From Bacillota bacterium (GTDB taxonomy: Bacteria > Bacillota > Limnochordia > Darwinibacteriales > DTU012), in the NCBI GenBank assembly GCA_012520795.1, contig JAAYNP010000003.1, forward strand, positions 1 through 64,000: 64,000 nt of DNA, in the 5' to 3' direction. Below the pieces are notes generated by a model. It was not told the origin of the DNA. It searched no databases and saw nothing but the letters and a program-made list of their open reading frames with translations. A program made the translations under genes and the position numbers. Positions 47,399-56,175 of this stretch are shown here, one piece after another. How positions within the stretch are numbered: the first letter of the stretch is position 1; each line of letters starts with the position of its first letter.

Positions 47399-47917
47399 AT
47401 GGATGATCCACTTGCCGCAGAGACTTTGGCTCTCTCAATTGCCCGGATCACTCAGGAACGCCATTTGGTGGTCGTTTGTGTCGGCACTGACCGTTCCACC
47501 GGAGACTCTTTAGGCCCATTGATTGGTACCGGGCTGCTGAAACACCTGCCTCCCAATATCACCGTCTATGGCTGTCTCGATGAACCTGTACACGCCTTGA
47601 ACCTCGAAAACTTTGTAACAAAGATTAAAAGCAAACATCAGGACTCTCTTGTTTTGGCCATTGACGCCTGCTTAGGCAAATCGGAAAATGTCGGTTATAT
47701 CTCTCTCAAGACCGGCCCTTTAAAACCGGGGACTGGAGTCAATAAAGCCCTTCCGGAAATAGGCGATTTTCACATTATCGGTGTCGTCAATGTTGGCGGT
47801 ATGATGGAGTATTTTGTTCTCCAAAACACCAGGCTCAGCTTGGTAATACGGATGAGCGAAATCATCATCAAAGGCCTGTTAATGAGCGTCCGAGATGTAA
47901 GCGTACACAGAGCTTAA
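47399..47917 (+). CDS. yyaC: Spore protease-like protein YyaC; N-terminus may extend upstream
   Basis: VVVCVGTDRSTGDSLGPLIGTGLLKHLPPNITVYGCLDEPVHALNLENF. Confidence 0.93.
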   Translation: MDDPLAAETLALSIARITQERHLVVVCVGTDRSTGDSLGPLIGTGLLKHLPPNITVYGCLDEPVHALNLENFVTKIKSKHQDSLVLAIDACLGKSENVGYISLKTGPLKPGTGVNKALPEIGDFHIIGVVNVGGMMEYFVLQNTRLSLVIRMSEIIIKGLLMSVRDVSVHRA

Positions 47918-47942
47918 TGTTCCACGTGGAACATTAAGCTCT
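47909..47942. other. parS: 34-bp perfect palindrome with a consensus parS (TGTTCCACGTGGAACA at 47918-47933)
   Basis: agagcttaatgttccacgtggaacattaagctct, then ctttt; parS consensus matched; near parAB. Confidence 0.9.
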
Positions 47943-47965: not shown

Positions 47966-49102
47966 CTAGGCTCTTTTGCCTATTTGCCTGATCCGTTCCA
48001 ACAAACCGCCCTGTCCTCTGCTTTTTCCGTCTGCAGGCTGGCAGTACTGCTCGGCAACTGCCCTAAAACTCTGGCTCGCAGCAGCAGAAGGCTCTCCTTC
48101 CACTATCGGCTTCTGCCGCATATTTGCTTCCCGCACCCGCATGTCATCAAAAATGAATCCTGCGTACCCTAGCTCAAAACTCAAGAACTTTCTGGCTGCG
48201 AACTGCAGTTTTTCAGCGGTGCTTTCCGCTTCCGGACGATAATAAACCCGGTTGACCACCAGATTCAAGTTCAGCGGCCGCGTTCTTTGCGTCACCAATG
48301 TCTTGAGCAAGGCATAAGTATCCGTGATTGAGTGGGGTTCGGGAGTGGTGACCAAATAACCCTCTTGCGCAGCCAGGACAAAGTTTACTGAACCAGGTGT
48401 GATTCCAGCGCTTGTATCCACGATGACCACGTCAAAATAGCGGAACAGTTCCTGCAGTTCTCTGGCGAGCAGATTATACTCATAGATCGTAAGCTGTGTC
48501 AGCGGCTGCACGCCTGAACAGCCGGGGACAACATGTACCCTGGGCTGTACCTCCGTGAGAATATCCATTACTCCACATTTGCCCGTAATTACGTGTCCGA
48601 GATGATAGCGGGGCGCCAAATCCAGAAGCACATCGACATTGGCCGTGCCAAGAGCGGCATCAAAAATACAGGTTTTGTAGTCCAATTCTGCCAGTGCATA
48701 CGCCAGATTGATCGCCAGCGTAGTCTTACCGACCCCGCCTTTACCGGAACATACGCTGATCAACTGCCTGTCTCTCGGCGGATCGATGCAGACCAGGCGG
48801 TTAACCTCAAAATCCATGTGTTTCAGCACCAAAGACCGGTTTTCTCCTCCGGCCCGTTCAATGATGATATATTTGTTATCCTGCTCTGGCAGTGCTTCGT
48901 GCCCCACTGTGACTGTTGTGCCAACTGGCAGCAGTACGAGTTTTCCCTCGCTCATGGGAAACTTGATCCTGATCAATCCCTGCCGGGAATTGATCCCGAT
49001 TACTTCACTGGTGAAGACCCCTTGGAACAGTCCCGATTCAACAGTGAACTTAATCTGGCTTCCGATCTTCCAGGTAGAGGAGTTTTCGTTCCCGCCGAAC
49101 AT
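47966..49102 (-). CDS. PilZN/YcgR N-terminal-like domain fused to a MinD/FlhG-type ATPase
   Basis: N-terminus WKIGSQIKFTVESGLFQGVFTSEVIGINSRQGLIRIKFPMSEGKLVLLPVGTTVTVGH; deviant Walker A SVCSGKGGVGKTTLAINLAYAL; VIVDTSAGI; C-terminal GGLLERIRQIGKRA. Confidence 0.8.
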   Translation of the reverse strand: MFGGNENSSTWKIGSQIKFTVESGLFQGVFTSEVIGINSRQGLIRIKFPMSEGKLVLLPVGTTVTVGHEALPEQDNKYIIIERAGGENRSLVLKHMDFEVNRLVCIDPPRDRQLISVCSGKGGVGKTTLAINLAYALAELDYKTCIFDAALGTANVDVLLDLAPRYHLGHVITGKCGVMDILTEVQPRVHVVPGCSGVQPLTQLTIYEYNLLARELQELFRYFDVVIVDTSAGITPGSVNFVLAAQEGYLVTTPEPHSITDTYALLKTLVTQRTRPLNLNLVVNRVYYRPEAESTAEKLQFAARKFLSFELGYAGFIFDDMRVREANMRQKPIVEGEPSAAASQSFRAVAEQYCQPADGKSRGQGGLLERIRQIGKRA

Positions 49103-49121
49103 GAGAATACCTCCAGACGTT

Positions 49122-49955
49122 TTAACCTCGCATTAACTCTATAATCCGCTCCAGTTCTTCATCGGAATAGTATTCGATTTCAATTTTGCCCCTGCCCCGT
49201 TTGTAAATCAAACGGACTTTGGTTCCCAACACTCTTTGCAGCTCGTCCCGAACCATCTGCACTTGTGGGTCCAGCGTTCCTTTCCTGCCCGCCGCCGGCT
49301 TGGGGTTTTGCTGCACCAGCCGTTCCAGCTGGCGGACACTGAGCTCTTCTTTCACTGCTTTTTGCGCCAGCGCATATCGCAGTTTGACCGAATCAACGCC
49401 TAAAAGGACTTTTGCATGCCCGCGGCTCAATCTCCCCTCCGCCACCATTTCTTTTATTGGAGGTTCCAAAGTTAACAGGCGCAGAGCATTGGTAATGGAT
49501 GACCGCTTCTTGCCAACGGATTGGGCTACTTCTTCCTGAGTCATGTCAAACTCTTCAATCAGTATTTTATAGCCCTCAGCCTCCTCAATTGCATTGAGGT
49601 CTTCCCGCTGAAGGTTCTCGATCAAGGCTAGTTCCGTCATCTCCCGATCGGACAATTCCTTCACCACTGCGGGAATAGTCTTTAACCCCGCCAGCTGAGA
49701 TGCTCTCCACCGTCTTTCACCTACTACAATCTGATAGTCTTCTCCGGCTCGGCGAACAATGATCGGTTCCAAAACGCCGTGGTTTTTGATGGACTCTGCC
49801 AATTGCTCCAGCTTCTCTTGATCAAAATGCTTGCGGGGCTGAAATGGATTGATGGTGATTTTGTCCACTTCAATTTGGCTTACCAGATTACGGCTGCTCA
49901 GATCCCCTTGGGGGATCAAGGACCGCAGCCCCTTGCCTAAAGCCTGTCTACTCAA
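49122..49955 (-). CDS. parB: Chromosome partitioning protein ParB/Spo0J
   Basis: [69 protein letters not shown]. Confidence 0.95.
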
Positions 49956-50716
49956 GAATTAAGCACCTCCTGGGCTAAACTTTCATAGGCCAATGCGCCT
50001 TTTGAGCTGCTGTCATACAAGGCTATTGGTTTACCAAAACTTGGTGCTTCGCTTAGCTTCACATTACGGGGAATAATGGATTCATAAACCTTTACCTGCT
50101 GTTGAAAGTAGTTTTTCACATCCTGAATTACCTGATGGGACAAGTTTGTGCGGACATCATACATCGTCATAACCACGCCCTCCCAGGTCAAGTCCGGGTT
50201 CAAGTGTTCCTGAACCATGGCAATTGTACTCACCAACTGACTTAATCCTTCGAGAGCATAATATTCACATTGGATAGGTACGATCACCGAATGCGAAGCT
50301 GTCAAGCCATTAATTGTCAACAACCCTAATGATGGAGGCGCATCGATAATAATATAATCGTATTTATCGACAACAAAATCCAAAGCCCTTTTGAGCCGGA
50401 ATTCCCTTGACAGGATTGAAACCAGTTCGATCTCTGCTCCTGCCAGCTCAATGGTGGCCGGTGCTATAAAAAAACCTTCTATTTCGGTATTTAAGATAAT
50501 CCGATCAATCCTCTCACCCTCAATGAGCACAGAATACATGCAGCGCCCGATTTTGCCTTTATCCACACCCACACCGCTTGATGCATTGCCCTGCGGATCA
50601 ATATCAACAAGGAGGACCCGTTTCCCGGCCAAAGCAATGTATGCTCCAAGATTGACTGCTGTTGTACTCTTGCCGACTCCACCCTTTTGATTGACGATGG
50701 AAATAATCTTACCCAT
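49952..50716 (-). CDS. parA: Chromosome partitioning ATPase ParA/Soj
   Basis: [50 protein letters not shown]. Confidence 0.96.
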
Positions 50717-51597
50717 CACTGGTCCCTCCACTCCGGCTTTGTAATCGTGACCGTTACCCGGTAAGCCTTGTCATCTTCATCTTCTTCATAAGTCACCTGT
50801 AAACCACTGTCAGTTAGTGTATGCGTTAATTCCTTCACACCGTTTGTGAACAAACGGATGTCCTTGATCACGATTCTCCTGTTTTGTTTTGGGGCAGGTT
50901 TTGTCTGTGTTTCCTGTTTCTTCCGAATCAGCTCTTCTGTCTGTCGCACACTCAGGCTCTTTGCTGTGATCAGCTGTAAAACCTCCAATTGTTCTGGAGC
51001 CGATTCCAGCTGCAGCAGTACTCTGGCATGCCGCTCGCTGATTATTTCCCGGGAAATATATTCTCTAACTTCTGGATCGAGCCGCAGCAACCGCAGCCTG
51101 TTGGCTATGTACGATTGACTTTTGCCAATCCGTTTCGCCAGTTCCTCTTGGGTCAACTCAAATTCAGCGATTAACCGCACATATCCCTCTGCTTCCTCAA
51201 GAAAATGGAGGTCCCGCCGCTGCAGGTTTTCAATCAATGCTATTTCCGCGGCGGTGCGATCATCCATAATCTTAACTATGGCCGGAATCGTGTTCCATCC
51301 CAACAATTTGCAGGCCCGCAGCCGCCGCTCCCCTGTAACCAACTGATAACTGTGATTCACCAATCTAACAATGATCGGGTGAAGCAAGCCGTGTGCGGCA
51401 ATGGAGTTGGCCAATTCTCCCAGCGCTTCCTGATCAAATGTGACTCTGGGCTGAAATGGATTTCGTTCAATCCGGCTGATCGGTATTACTTGTACATCGT
51501 CCTCCAGGAAATCTGGTATCTTATCCGCCTGAGTGGCCAGTGCTTCCGTCTTGTTCGGTGATCTGTGTTTCGATCGCAGCAGATCCGTTAGTTTCAC
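50716..51597 (-). CDS. noc: Nucleoid occlusion protein Noc (ParB paralog)
   Basis: ParB-like core plus Noc-type [16 protein letters not shown] and [11 protein letters not shown]-terminus [27 protein letters not shown]; located between parA and rsmG. Confidence 0.93.
51044..51057. promoter_or_regulatory. Perfect Noc-binding-site palindrome within noc
   Basis: ATTTCCCGGGAAAT; palindrome extends to TATTTCCCGGGAAATA. Confidence 0.8.
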
Positions 51598-51732: not shown

Positions 51733-52455
51733 TCACAGCGGTCTTTTGGCGGGAACCCCTGCTTTTCTTGGATATTGATCTGGTGTTTCCGCTTCTTTTC
51801 TAAATCTAACGATCCAGCGTTCTCCCATGTCAAACGGCAGCTGCAGGAGTTCTCTCTGGATCACCGAAAGATTGAGGAGTTTTACGGCGTTGGCAGCCGT
51901 CTTCAGTTCTTCAGGAAAACTGCTGCCCTTAAAGGCAATGAAATACCCTCCCACGGACAAGAAAGGGGTGCAGTACTCCAAAAGAACCGGCAAAGGCGCA
52001 ACTGCCCGAGCTGTGGCCCACTGGAACGCTTCACGGTATTGGGGATCTCTGGCCAGCTCCTCCGCTCGGCCGTGGATGCTGCTTACATGGTTCAGTTGGA
52101 GCGTTTCACAGACTTCTCGCAAAAATCTAACTCTCTTTTCCATTGAATCAACCAGCACTACCGGATCTGAGGTGAAGCAGCTGGCAATGACTACCCCGGG
52201 AAAACCCGCCCCACTGCCCACATCAATTCCTTTGCCCTTAAATGTAAAACCTGTTTTCTGCACTGCAAGGCAATCGACAAAGTGCTTGACGGCAAACTCT
52301 GCCTCTGAAGTGATCCGGGTTAGATTCATCTGCCTGTTGCCGGCTTCAACCAACTTGGCGAATTTCAACAACTGCTCAACCTGATGGGAGTTGATTTCAA
52401 TGCACATCAGAGCACAGCCTCTAATCAGGTGTGTGCGCAAGTTCTCCCTATCCAT
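51733..52455 (-). CDS. rsmG: 16S rRNA (guanine527-N7)-methyltransferase RsmG
   Basis: GKGIDVGSGAGFPGVVIASCFTSDPVVLVDSMEKRVRFLREVCETLQLNHVSSIHGRAEE. Confidence 0.96.
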   Translation of the reverse strand: MDRENLRTHLIRGCALMCIEINSHQVEQLLKFAKLVEAGNRQMNLTRITSEAEFAVKHFVDCLAVQKTGFTFKGKGIDVGSGAGFPGVVIASCFTSDPVVLVDSMEKRVRFLREVCETLQLNHVSSIHGRAEELARDPQYREAFQWATARAVAPLPVLLEYCTPFLSVGGYFIAFKGSSFPEELKTAANAVKLLNLSVIQRELLQLPFDMGERWIVRFRKEAETPDQYPRKAGVPAKRPL

Positions 52456-54314
52456 CAGCTCTTTCCCTCCATGTATACTAAAAGTACAGATATATCAGCT
52501 GGTGTAACCCCGGATATCCGCGACGCCTGCCCCAAAGTCATAGGTTTGAATTGAGCAAGCTTCTCCCGGGCCTGCCGCGACAGCCCCGGTACCGCCGCAT
52601 AGTCGATACCCTGCAGCTGGCGGTGCTCAAGTTTGCGGAACCGGTCGATGGCCATACTCTGTTTTTCAAGGTATCCCCGGTATTTGATGGCTATTTCCAC
52701 CTCTTCCACGACTTGCGGGTCAAGTTCGGGCAGTTCTGCAAGGCGGCCCAAATCCTGATAGCCGATCTCTGGGCGCCTTAAGAGTTCTGCCAGGGTGAAT
52801 CCGTGCGTAATCGACGCTGTACCCATTTCTGCGAGAATTTGGTTGGTCTCTTTGGTAGACCCAATGCTGTAGTGTTCCAGCCGGTCGATTTCCTTGTAAA
52901 TCTGTTCCCATTTTTGTTCAAATTCCCGGTACCGCCCTTCAGAAATCAACCCCAGCTTGTAGCCAAGTGGAGTCAGCCTTTGGTCCGCATTGTCGACTCG
53001 CAAATTCAGGCGGTATTCAGCATGGGATGTCATCAGCCGGTAAGGCTCCCTTGTCCCTTTGATTACCAAATCATCGATAAGCACACCGATATAGGCTTGC
53101 GAACGATCGATAGTGATTAAATCTTCCTCCCGCAGATACAGGGCCGCATTGATCCCCGCAATCAAACCTTGGGCTGCCGCTTCTTCATAACCCGATGTTC
53201 CATTGATCTGCCCTGCAGTAAAAAGCCCCTCATAGTTCTTTACCTGCAGATAACTGTTGAGCAGGGTTGGATCCAGGCAATCATATTCAATAGCATACCC
53301 AATGCGCATAATTTCTGCATGCTCCAGCCCCGGCACTGTCCGGATCAGCTCCCGCTGGACATCAGCCGGCAGAGAGCTGGATAAGCCGCTTAAATATCCT
53401 TCAAATGTGTCCCACCCTTCCGGTTCCACAAACACCTGGTGCCGATCCCGGTCAGGGAATTCCACCACTTTGCTTTCAATCGAAGGGCAGTACCTGGGCC
53501 CGACACCGGTAATCGCTCCTGTGTACAGGGCCGCCCGGTGCAGGTTGTCCCTGACAATCTGGTGCGTCTTTGCGTTGGTGTAAGTCAACCAGCATGGTGC
53601 CTGTTCAATGCGCAGGCCTTTGGTTGCAAACGAGAAACCCTGCAGAAATTCGTTGCCGGGCTGTTTGATCATCTTGCTATAGTCGAGCGAACGGAGATTG
53701 ATCCTGGCTGGTGTCCCCGTCTTAAACCTCACCAGGGGCAGCCATTGCTCCAGGGCATTGCCCAATGCCGCGGCAGGGTGCTGCCCTTGGGGTCCGGACG
53801 GGAATGACTCTTCTCCAATAAAAATCCGGGAGCGCAAGTAAGTCCCTGTGGCCAAAATCACGGCTTTGGCCTTTATCTTAGTATTCCCAATCACAACACC
53901 GCCGATCCGGTTTCCCTTGATCAACAAGTCGGTGACGGTGCCTTCCTTAAGGTACAAATTGGGGGTAGTCTCCAAAACACTTTTCATTTTGCGCTGGTAT
54001 AATTTGCGGTCGATTTGCGCTCTTAGAGCCTGGACTGCTGGCCCTTTGCGCGTATTCAACCGGCGCATCTGCATCAAAGTCGCATCAGCAATCTTCGCCA
54101 TCGCACCGCCCAAGGCATCGATCTCCCTGATTAGGTGCGCCTTGGCCGGGCCCCCTAAAGACGGGTTGCAGGGCATTAAGCCCACGTTGTCCAGGTTCAT
54201 GGTCAGCAGCAGCACGCGCCGGCCCATATTGGCGGCGGCCAAAGCAGCTTCGCACCCGGCATGCCCTGCTCCGACCACAACCAGGTCATATCCAGAACTG
54301 CTATGCTGATACAT
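52455..54314 (-). CDS. mnmG: tRNA uridine-5-carboxymethylaminomethyl(34) synthesis enzyme MnmG, paralog 2
   Basis: [61 protein letters not shown]; full-length C-terminus [17 protein letters not shown]. Confidence 0.95.
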
Positions 54315-56175
54315 GCTCCCTGTCTCCCTTCAAAACAACCAGTAGGACATTGATATCTGCAGGAGATACTCCGGAGATCCGGGATGCCTGGCCCAAAGAT
54401 GTGGGCTTGATCGAAGTCAGGCGCTCTTTAGCCTCCGTACGCAAACCATGGATTTGATCATAGTCTATGGTTTCGGGAATAGCAATATCTTCCAGCTTGT
54501 TAAACTGCTCAATTTGCATGAGCTGACGCTCGATGTAAGCTTTGAATTTGCATTCGATCTCAATCTGCTCAACCACTTCCGGATCCAGTTTGGGCAGTGG
54601 AGCAAAGAAACCCAGGTTTTTAAACTGGATCTGCGGCCTTTGCAGAATCTCATGAAGGGTCACTGATTTTTTCAGATCACCAGATCCCAACCGGATCAAG
54701 TAATCGCGCACCTCCGCTGTTGGTGAGACCTGCACTTCCTCCAACCATTGTAATGTCTCCTGAATAGCCAGTTTCTTGGCTGCCACTCTTTTGCAGCGCT
54801 GATCATCGATAAGGCCGACTTTATAACCGATTTCCCTGAGCCGCAGGTCTGCATTGTCCTGGCGCAAAATTAACCGATATTCTGCCCGCGATGTCATCAT
54901 CCGGTAGGGTTCCTCAGTTCCTTTGGTGACCAAATCATCAATCAAAACTCCAATATAAGCCTGGGATCGTGACAGAATCAAACTTGGCCTCCCTTTTACC
55001 TTGTGTGCCGCGTTGATCCCGGCGATCAACCCCTGTGCTGCCGCTTCTTCATATCCAGAGGTCCCGTTGATCTGTCCCGCCGTAAACAGCCCTTTGACCA
55101 GTTTCGATTCCAGGCTGGGATACACTTGCTCGGGCAGAATATAATCATATTCAACCGCGTAGCCTGTACGCATGATTTCAACCTGCTCCAACCCGGGAAT
55201 CGTCCGGAGGATCTGCAGTTGGACCTCCTCAGGCATGCTGGTGGTTAGGCCCAGGCAGTACAGCTCCTTAGTATATTCACCTTCCGGTTCCAGGAATATT
55301 TGATGGTCTATTTTGTCGGGAAACCGCAGCACTTTCCGATCTATTGAAGGGCAATAGCGCGGGCCTTTTGTTTGAATGGCTCCGGTTTGAATCGGCGAAA
55401 GATGAATATTGTCCCGGATTACCTGGATCGTCTCTGAAGTAGTCCGTGTATACCAACAGGGGCTCTGTTCCCGGACAATCAGCGGTGTATCAAAAGAAAA
55501 CCGGAGCGGCTTTTCCGATCCCGGCTGGCAAGTCAGCTTGCCATAATCCACACTGTCCGCGTGCACTCTTGGCGGCGTGGCTGTTTGGAACCGCCTCAGC
55601 TTCAAGCCGGCATCAATCAGGCTCTGAGAAAGCTCATCGGCACTAGGTTCTCCCTGGCGCCCACCGGAATAACGCACTTGGCCGATCACAATCTGACCCC
55701 GGAGAAATGTACCAGTTGCCAAAATCACGGCTTCCCCTGTGATTTTTGTGCCGGTGTTCAACTGGACTCCATAGATTACACCGTCATCCACCAGGATTTT
55801 GGTGACCAAGCCCTGCCGAACACTCAAATTGGGCTCTGACTCTAAAGTCTTGGTCATCACCGCCCGGTATTTCACCTTGTCAGCCTGGGCCCTCAAGGCA
55901 TGAACAGCCGGGCCGCGGCTTAGATTGAGCATCCGGATGTTCAAATAGGACTGATCGATCACCCTGGCCATTTCACCGCCTAGAGCATCGAGCTCCCTGA
56001 CCAAATGGCTCTTAGCCTGAGGGCCGCCAATTGCCGGGTTACATGACATTTGTGCAATTGTATCCAGATTCATGGTGATCAAAAGCGTTTTACAGTCAAG
56101 CCGGGCAGCAGCCAGAGCCGCTTCACAGCCGGCATGTCCGCCGCCGACTACAATTACCGCATACTCCTTGCTCAT
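54301..56175 (-). CDS. mnmG: MnmG, paralog 1
   Basis: [63 protein letters not shown]; full-length C-terminus [17 protein letters not shown]. Confidence 0.95.

What the first reader, a model, noticed from the sequence alone, without database searches (positions are those of the whole stretch)
47966..49102. PilZN/YcgR-N-like domain fused to a MinD/FlhG-type ATPase, fourth gene of the noc-parA-parB cluster
Seen: about 95 N-terminal residues read like a PilZN/YcgR-N beta-barrel (KIGSQIKFTVESGLFQGVFTSEVIGINSRQGLIRIKFPMSEGKLVLLPVGTTVTVGH), joined to a deviant-Walker-A ATPase (SGKGGVGKTT) and a C-terminal amphipathic-looking segment (GGLLERIRQIGKRA) that resembles a MinD-type membrane-targeting tail. 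It lies 19 nt after parB and is followed by parS. Established: YcgR-N normally pairs with a c-di-GMP-binding PilZ domain, and FlhG/MinD normally sits with flagellar or division genes. No flagellar genes are visible here. Inference: a membrane-associated ATPase linking origin segregation or nucleoid occlusion to envelope or polar signals.
Basis: partly seen in the sequence, partly recalled or inferred. Interest (0 to 1): 0.76.

Follow-up and report, generated by a model that had tools for sequence, protein, structure and literature searches.

The report
PilZN–FlhG-like ATPase in par operon
Next to the genes that segregate this bacterium's chromosome sits a membrane-tailed cousin of the flagellar ATPase FlhG, with a YcgR-type barrel fused to its front and, in this genus, the residue needed to hydrolyse ATP lost, so it may act as a locked switch at the centromere rather than a cycling one; its function is untested.

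Summary
ORF 47966-49102(-), 378 aa, has an N-terminal PilZN domain (Pfam PF12945 above cut-off in 19 of 20 fusion proteins scanned), a deviant-Walker-A ATPase nearest FleN/FlhG rather than MinD, and a conserved amphipathic C-terminus. It starts 19 nt after parB. The only parS found in the 2.37-Mb genome lies 32 nt past its stop codon.

The gene follows parB in 23 of 23 relatives that carry it (10 families of the class). Most loci also have parS close to the gene. Relatives without it keep noc-parA-parB-(parS)-yyaC, and some carry larBC or an M23 peptidase in the slot.

It is not the flagellar FlhG: the genome has a separate FlhG, YcgR and MinD, and all 21 par-linked fusions lack FlhG's DQAxxLR FlhF-activating helix. 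Similar fusions occur elsewhere in the phylum, some in flagellar operons.

New here: this genus and a sister genus have Ala/Ser at the catalytic Asp, which is Asp in 137 of 138 other homologues. This is the change engineered to make hydrolysis-dead FleN and FlhG. The rest of the ATP site is intact and selection is purifying.

Best reading: a membrane-docked, ATP-locked accessory of ParABS/Noc. Anatomy is solid; function is inferred (about 0.45). A displaced motility regulator is the main rival.

The parts
47966..49102 (-). PilZN-FlhG-like ATPase fusion gene, 378 aa, fourth gene after noc-parA-parB
48905..49069 (-). PilZN (PF12945) match, residues 12-66; domain probably extends to about residue 95 as in relatives
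48041..48766 (-). MinD/FlhG-type ATPase domain, residues 113-354
48722..48748 (-). deviant Walker A SGKGGVGKT (residues 119-127), intact
48653..48655 (-). codon GCT for Ala150 in place of the catalytic Asp (FleN D48)
47969..48010 (-). C-terminal amphipathic segment GGLLERIRQIGKRA, putative membrane-targeting sequence
49110..49114 (-). Shine-Dalgarno-like GGAGG, 7 nt before the fusion's ATG
   Evidence: read directly
47918..47933 (.). parS TGTTCCACGTGGAACA, only copy found in the genome
49122..49955 (-). parB
49952..50731 (-). parA (soj)
50716..51597 (-). noc
   Evidence: TIGR04285 314.2 bits, cut-off 315
47399..47917 (+). yyaC (spore protease YyaC), convergent; its stop codon abuts parS

Best explanation
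The gene encodes an FlhG-derived, membrane-targeted MinD-family protein that has been recruited to the chromosome-partition locus. Shown by sequence: a PilZN barrel stands where FlhG carries its FlhF-activating DQAxxLR helix; the ATP-binding site is complete; the C-terminus keeps an FlhG/MinD-like amphipathic tail; and the gene lies between parB and parS. Inferred: it binds ATP, dimerises and sits on the membrane. It uses the PilZN barrel as a docking surface, not as a c-di-GMP sensor, for a partner of the ParABS/Noc system, most likely ParA. It would thereby hold or position the origin at the membrane or pole, as MinD is proposed to do for Soj in B. subtilis. In most families the ATPase cycle looks intact. 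In this genus and its sister genus the catalytic Asp is gone, so the protein should be a constitutive ATP dimer, a static anchor rather than a cycling positioner.
For: Directly behind parB in 23/23 genomes carrying it, 10 families; parB-gene gap 8-67 nt in 20/21 measured loci, one 312; parS within about 260 bp of the gene in 20/21 at <=1 mismatch. Only parS of the genome lies 32 nt past its stop. Par-linked fusions group together on the ATPase tree apart from one FlhG, and one clade is not rejected (p-AU 0.29). DQAxxLR absent in 21/21 par-linked fusions, present in the own FlhG. Separate FlhG, YcgR and MinD in the same genome. Catalytic Asp: A/S in 6 sequences, D in 137 of 138 others, with the other nucleotide-site residues kept; same change as FleN D48A in 8p53/8pb9, called ATP-binding but hydrolysis-incompetent, and as hydrolysis-dead FlhG D60A/D65A, the latter reported to form a constitutive homodimer. 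dN/dS 0.05-0.3 where measurable. Precedent: MinD, ComN and Soj act in one oriC-positioning pathway in B. subtilis, with MinD the likeliest immediate Soj target (PMC4949633).
Against: No interaction, localisation or phenotype data. The slot after parB holds larB-larC in f10 and an M23 peptidase in one f9 genome, so position alone does not prove function. Non-par relatives of the fusion exist in other classes. 49 of 50 genomes with a fusion are flagellated, which fits a motility role, though the phylum background is already 102/120. Tail amphipathicity exceeds shuffles in only some members taken singly. PilZN was not confirmed structurally: low pLDDT there.
Confidence: 0.45

Rival explanations
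1. It is a second FlhG-like motility regulator that merely happens to lie at the origin. PilZN and FlhG are both flagellar modules, and their fusion would act on flagellar number, placement or motor function.
For: 49/50 genomes with a fusion carry FlhA; PilZN otherwise occurs in YcgR beside FlhG; related fusions occupy the FlhG position in flagellar operons in other classes; unrelated genes (larBC, M23 peptidase) can occupy the slot after parB.
Against: DQAxxLR is missing in 21/21 par-linked fusions but kept in the three flagellar fusions that stand in for FlhG. FlhG coexists, and YcgR too in this genome. G050 keeps the fusion with no FlhA and no FliF found, although it is only 91% complete. 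Co-location with parB and parS spans 10 families. Flagellar background is already 85%.
Confidence: 0.27
2. It works in division-site control with Noc and the Min system, for example as a membrane partner that helps Noc-DNA complexes block septation over the origin.
For: Four-gene string with noc; membrane-type tail; MinD present elsewhere in the genome.
Against: Three f15 genomes keep the fusion with no noc in the string (L046, L050, L051). Genomes lacking the fusion keep noc.
Confidence: 0.12
3. It is a c-di-GMP-responsive switch at the origin, by analogy with YcgR.
For: PilZN domain; 5 GGDEF proteins in the genome.
Against: No PilZ domain (PF07238) match, although YcgR proteins scanned the same way show both PilZN and PilZ. 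In YcgR-type proteins c-di-GMP is bound by PilZ, not by PilZN alone (general knowledge).
Confidence: 0.06
4. In this genus it is a decaying gene, shown by the loss of the catalytic Asp.
For: Asp to Ala/Ser in 6 sequences; it is the fastest-changing gene of the string.
Against: Intact in all five genus members at 60-76% identity, dN/dS 0.05-0.3 where measurable. Only the hydrolysis residue is changed while the other ATP-site residues are kept.
Confidence: 0.03

Closest known systems
FlhG / FleN (YlxH) flagellar MinD-like ATPase
   Same: ATPase domain: best PDB sequence hits 8pb9, 8p53, 5j1j and 4rz3 and best fold hits 5j1j and 4rz2; amphipathic C-terminal tail.
   Different: PilZN in place of the DQAxxLR helix; par locus instead of flagellar operon; separate FlhG in the genome; catalytic Asp lost in this genus.
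YcgR / MotI (DgrA) flagellar brake
   Same: N-terminal PilZN (PF12945).
   Different: No PilZ domain; ATPase instead.
MinD
   Same: Fold, membrane tail; MinD acts with Soj in oriC placement in B. subtilis (PMC4949633).
   Different: 106 bits against the TIGR01968 cut-off of 213; the genome's true MinD scores 408 on another contig.
ParA / Soj
   Same: Superfamily; adjacent gene in the same string.
   Different: Weak sequence match (23% identity to the own ParA); has a membrane-type tail and a PilZN domain.
PilZN-FlhG fusions in flagellar operons (L166, L184, L185, L181)
   Same: Domain order PilZN then ATPase then tail.
   Different: Three of four carry DQAxxLR ahead of PilZN and stand in for FlhG; they group with FlhG on the tree.

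Membership tests
PilZN (PF12945) | Pfam gathering score | tested here: met
   30.5 bits (34.1 for the fragment) against 23; 19 of 20 fusion proteins scanned are above it, L191 gave no match
PilZN (PF12945) | six-stranded barrel fold | tested here: inconclusive
   beta strands predicted at 16-22, 27-38, 43-48, 63-66 and 78-83, but pLDDT 33-64 in this region
YcgR flagellar brake | c-di-GMP-binding PilZ domain | tested here: not met
   no PF07238 match; the genome's YcgR has one
FlhG/FleN | MinD-like ATPase nearest FleN/FlhG | tested here: met
   8pb9 E 2.6e-47; Foldseek 5j1j TM 0.92 by target
FlhG/FleN | N-terminal DQAxxLR FlhF-activating helix | tested here: not met
   0/21 par-linked fusions; present in the own FlhG; motif function from PMC12826062
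FlhG/FleN | flagellar operon position next to flhF | tested here: not met
   par locus in 23/23; FlhG sits at G000:C124
FlhG/FleN | catalytic Asp of the DxD motif | tested here: not met
   A/S in this genus and g5; D in the other par-linked members
MinD | TIGR01968 cut-off | tested here: not met
   106 against 213 bits
FlhG/MinD-type membrane targeting | C-terminal amphipathic helix | tested here: met
   pattern GF(L/F)xR(L/I/V)(R/K) kept in most members and helix 367-377 predicted; lipid binding not testable here
ParABS component | conserved in the par operon with parS | tested here: met
ParABS component | effect on segregation or binding to ParA/ParB | not testable with these tools
   needs genetics or biochemistry

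The most novel reading that the evidence does not exclude
A fourth, membrane-anchoring component of a chromosomal ParABS/Noc system: an FlhG paralogue with a PilZN docking barrel that tethers ParA (or ParB-parS) to the membrane, and which in one lineage has become a naturally hydrolysis-dead, permanently ATP-bound dimer, turning a MinD-type switch into a static centromere anchor.
Probability: 0.25. Interest if true: 0.82.

Novelty: new variant of a known kind. Interest (0 to 1): 0.62.

Why it matters
How bacterial origins are held at poles or membranes outside a few models is open. In B. subtilis the link runs through MinD, ComN and Soj encoded at separate loci. Here a candidate membrane receptor appears to be encoded inside the par string and conserved across much of a class. 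The natural loss of the hydrolysis Asp in one clade is an evolutionary test of what the ATP cycle is for: members with and without Asp can be swapped and compared. It also shows PilZN repeatedly joined to FlhG-type ATPases, which makes PilZN-FlhG contact testable.

Tried and rejected
Single-protein scan of genome contigs found nothing; the alignment scan returned only FlhG/FleN without PilZN, so organism names of fusion carriers were not obtained. Single-sequence AlphaFold was poor, mean pLDDT 36; the second job was limited to the window and the search for related loci sequences, so the PilZN part had no alignment. Shared neighbourhood of the non-par fusions (lspA, rluD, pyrR, dihydroorotase; pyruvate kinase) gave no functional clue. 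Rejected: plain FlhG (no DQAxxLR, separate FlhG), MinD (below cut-off, separate MinD), c-di-GMP receptor (no PilZ), pseudogene (dN/dS). Literature searches for PilZN-MinD fusions found nothing relevant in the held library.

Full report
Observation. The ORF 47966-49102 on the minus strand encodes 378 residues. It starts 19 nt after the parB stop with a GGAGG seven bases before its ATG, so co-transcription with parAB is likely though not shown. The upstream genes are ParB, ParA and Noc (the Noc model scores 314.2 against a cut-off of 315). Downstream, 32 nt past the stop codon, is TGTTCCACGTGGAACA, a parS-type palindrome. A search of the whole 2.37-Mb genome finds no other parS with zero or one mismatch. 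The spore gene yyaC converges from the other side.

Domains. Pfam PilZNR (PF12945) matches residues 12-66 above its curated cut-off, and the N-terminal fragment alone scores better still. Of 20 fusion proteins scanned, from this class and from other classes, 19 are above the cut-off and one (L191) gave no match. The ATPase is closest to FleN and FlhG by sequence and by fold, clearly nearer than MinD; the MinD family score is far below cut-off. A conserved amphipathic C-terminus (GFLxRLRxx-like) occurs in most par-linked members and is absent from the genome's own FlhG. Taken singly the amphipathicity test is significant for only some members, so the argument rests on conservation. AlphaFold with FlhG rows gives a confident ATPase (pLDDT above 90 over most of it) and a C-terminal helix at 367-377. 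The N-terminus is all beta but low confidence, so the PilZN call rests on profiles, not on structure.

Context. In a sample of 61 genomes (own plus 60 relatives), 23 carry the fusion, from ten families, and in all 23 it is the gene directly after parB. The gap to parB is 8-67 nt in 20 of 21 measured loci and 312 in one; parS lies within about 260 bp of the gene in 20 of 21 at no more than one mismatch. In 20 genomes without the fusion, parB or its paralogue noc was found; most loci read rsmG-noc-parA-parB-(parS)-yyaC, including a same-family genome, while tested f10 genomes have larB and/or larC in the slot and one f9 genome an M23 peptidase; a few contigs end too early to tell. So the linkage is old and tight, but the slot is not reserved for par functions.

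Not FlhG, YcgR or MinD. The genome has a flagellar operon on another contig with FlhG (starting MNDQAQRLR), an adjacent YcgR with PilZN plus PilZ, FlhA and FliF, and a true MinD. The DQAxxLR helix, which activates FlhF in FlhG (PMC12826062), is absent from 21/21 par-linked fusions and 23/23 other non-flagellar fusions. It is present in three of four fusions that sit in flagellar operons, exactly the three that replace FlhG; the fourth stands beside a normal FlhG. On the ATPase tree the par-linked fusions group together apart from one FlhG (L197) and the very long-branched L198. A single clade is not rejected (p-AU 0.29 with L198 left out), and flagellar fusions fall among FlhG.

The lost catalytic Asp. 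Window residue 150 is Ala in DAALGTANVDV. HMMER aligns it with FleN chains 8p53 and 8pb9, which read DAALG where wild-type 5j1j reads DADLG, and with FlhG 4rz3, which reads DMAIG where 4rz2 reads DMDIG. The FleQ-FleN paper states that FleN D48A binds but does not hydrolyse ATP and was used to trap the dimer (PMC10723142). FlhG D60A (Geobacillus) and D65A (B. subtilis) are hydrolysis-dead, the latter described as a constitutive homodimer (PMC12327844). Across the family the position is Asp in 137 of 138 other sequences and Ala or Ser in six: five of this genus and one of a sister genus of the same family. Those six form one clade with full support, and a third genus of the family keeps Asp. K121, K126, T127, D148, N155 and D229 are all kept. 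dN/dS is 0.05-0.3 in the pairs where synonymous sites are not saturated. The direct prediction is ATP binding and dimerisation without turnover.

Mechanism. I read the protein as an FlhG-derived membrane protein co-opted by the partition locus, with PilZN as a docking barrel. In B. subtilis, MinD acts with ComN and Soj in one pathway that places oriC at the pole, and the authors name MinD as the likeliest immediate Soj target (PMC4949633). A dedicated MinD-family membrane receptor encoded in the par string would do the same job here, as a static version in this genus. Docking to ParA, the effect on the origin and membrane binding are inference.

Main rival. PilZN and FlhG are flagellar modules, and 49 of 50 fusion-carrying genomes have FlhA, against 102 of 120 in a phylum sample. 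One carrier, G050, lacks FlhA and FliF but is a 91%-complete draft. A motility function exercised from the origin locus cannot be excluded.

Known or new. I found no description of this fusion or of a par-linked FlhG paralogue in the papers searched; most subscription papers are not in that library. The parts are known; the combination, its conserved centromere location and the natural hydrolysis-dead clade make it a new variant of a known kind.

Noticed in passing
52455-54314 and 54301-56175 (-): Two tandem full-length mnmG (gidA) genes, both well above the TIGR00136 cut-off. The pair is conserved in the family members and one same-order genome examined (L038-L044), but only one mnmG is seen in other families.
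   Followed up: partly
51043-51058: Exact Noc-binding-site-like palindrome TATTTCCCGGGAAATA inside the noc gene itself; none expected by chance in the window.
   Followed up: partly
L166, L184, L185 (other classes): Flagellar operons in which FlhG is replaced by a DQAxxLR-PilZN-ATPase fusion, next to a YcgR-like gene: a three-module FlhG variant.
   Followed up: partly
L181:9460-11481: A PilZN-ATPase fusion next to a normal FlhG in one flagellar operon, followed by YcgR and CheB.
   Followed up: partly
L209, L211, L212 (family f10): larB and/or larC (nickel pincer cofactor) genes after parB, where the fusion sits in other families, with parS still nearby.
   Followed up: partly
L046, L050, L051 (family f15): noc is missing from the rsmG-parA-parB-fusion string although the fusion remains.
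   Followed up: no
L197:9157-10116: Flagellar FlhG of family f9 groups inside the par-linked fusion clade on the ATPase tree; long branch, or exchange between paralogues.
   Followed up: no
L198:9644-10678: Very divergent par-linked copy in G039 with an in-frame TGA in the wider match: possible decay or assembly error.
   Followed up: no
L004: Own-genome ORF of 452 aa in which a response-regulator-like stretch precedes a MinD/ParA-type ATPase, CpaE-like.
   Followed up: no
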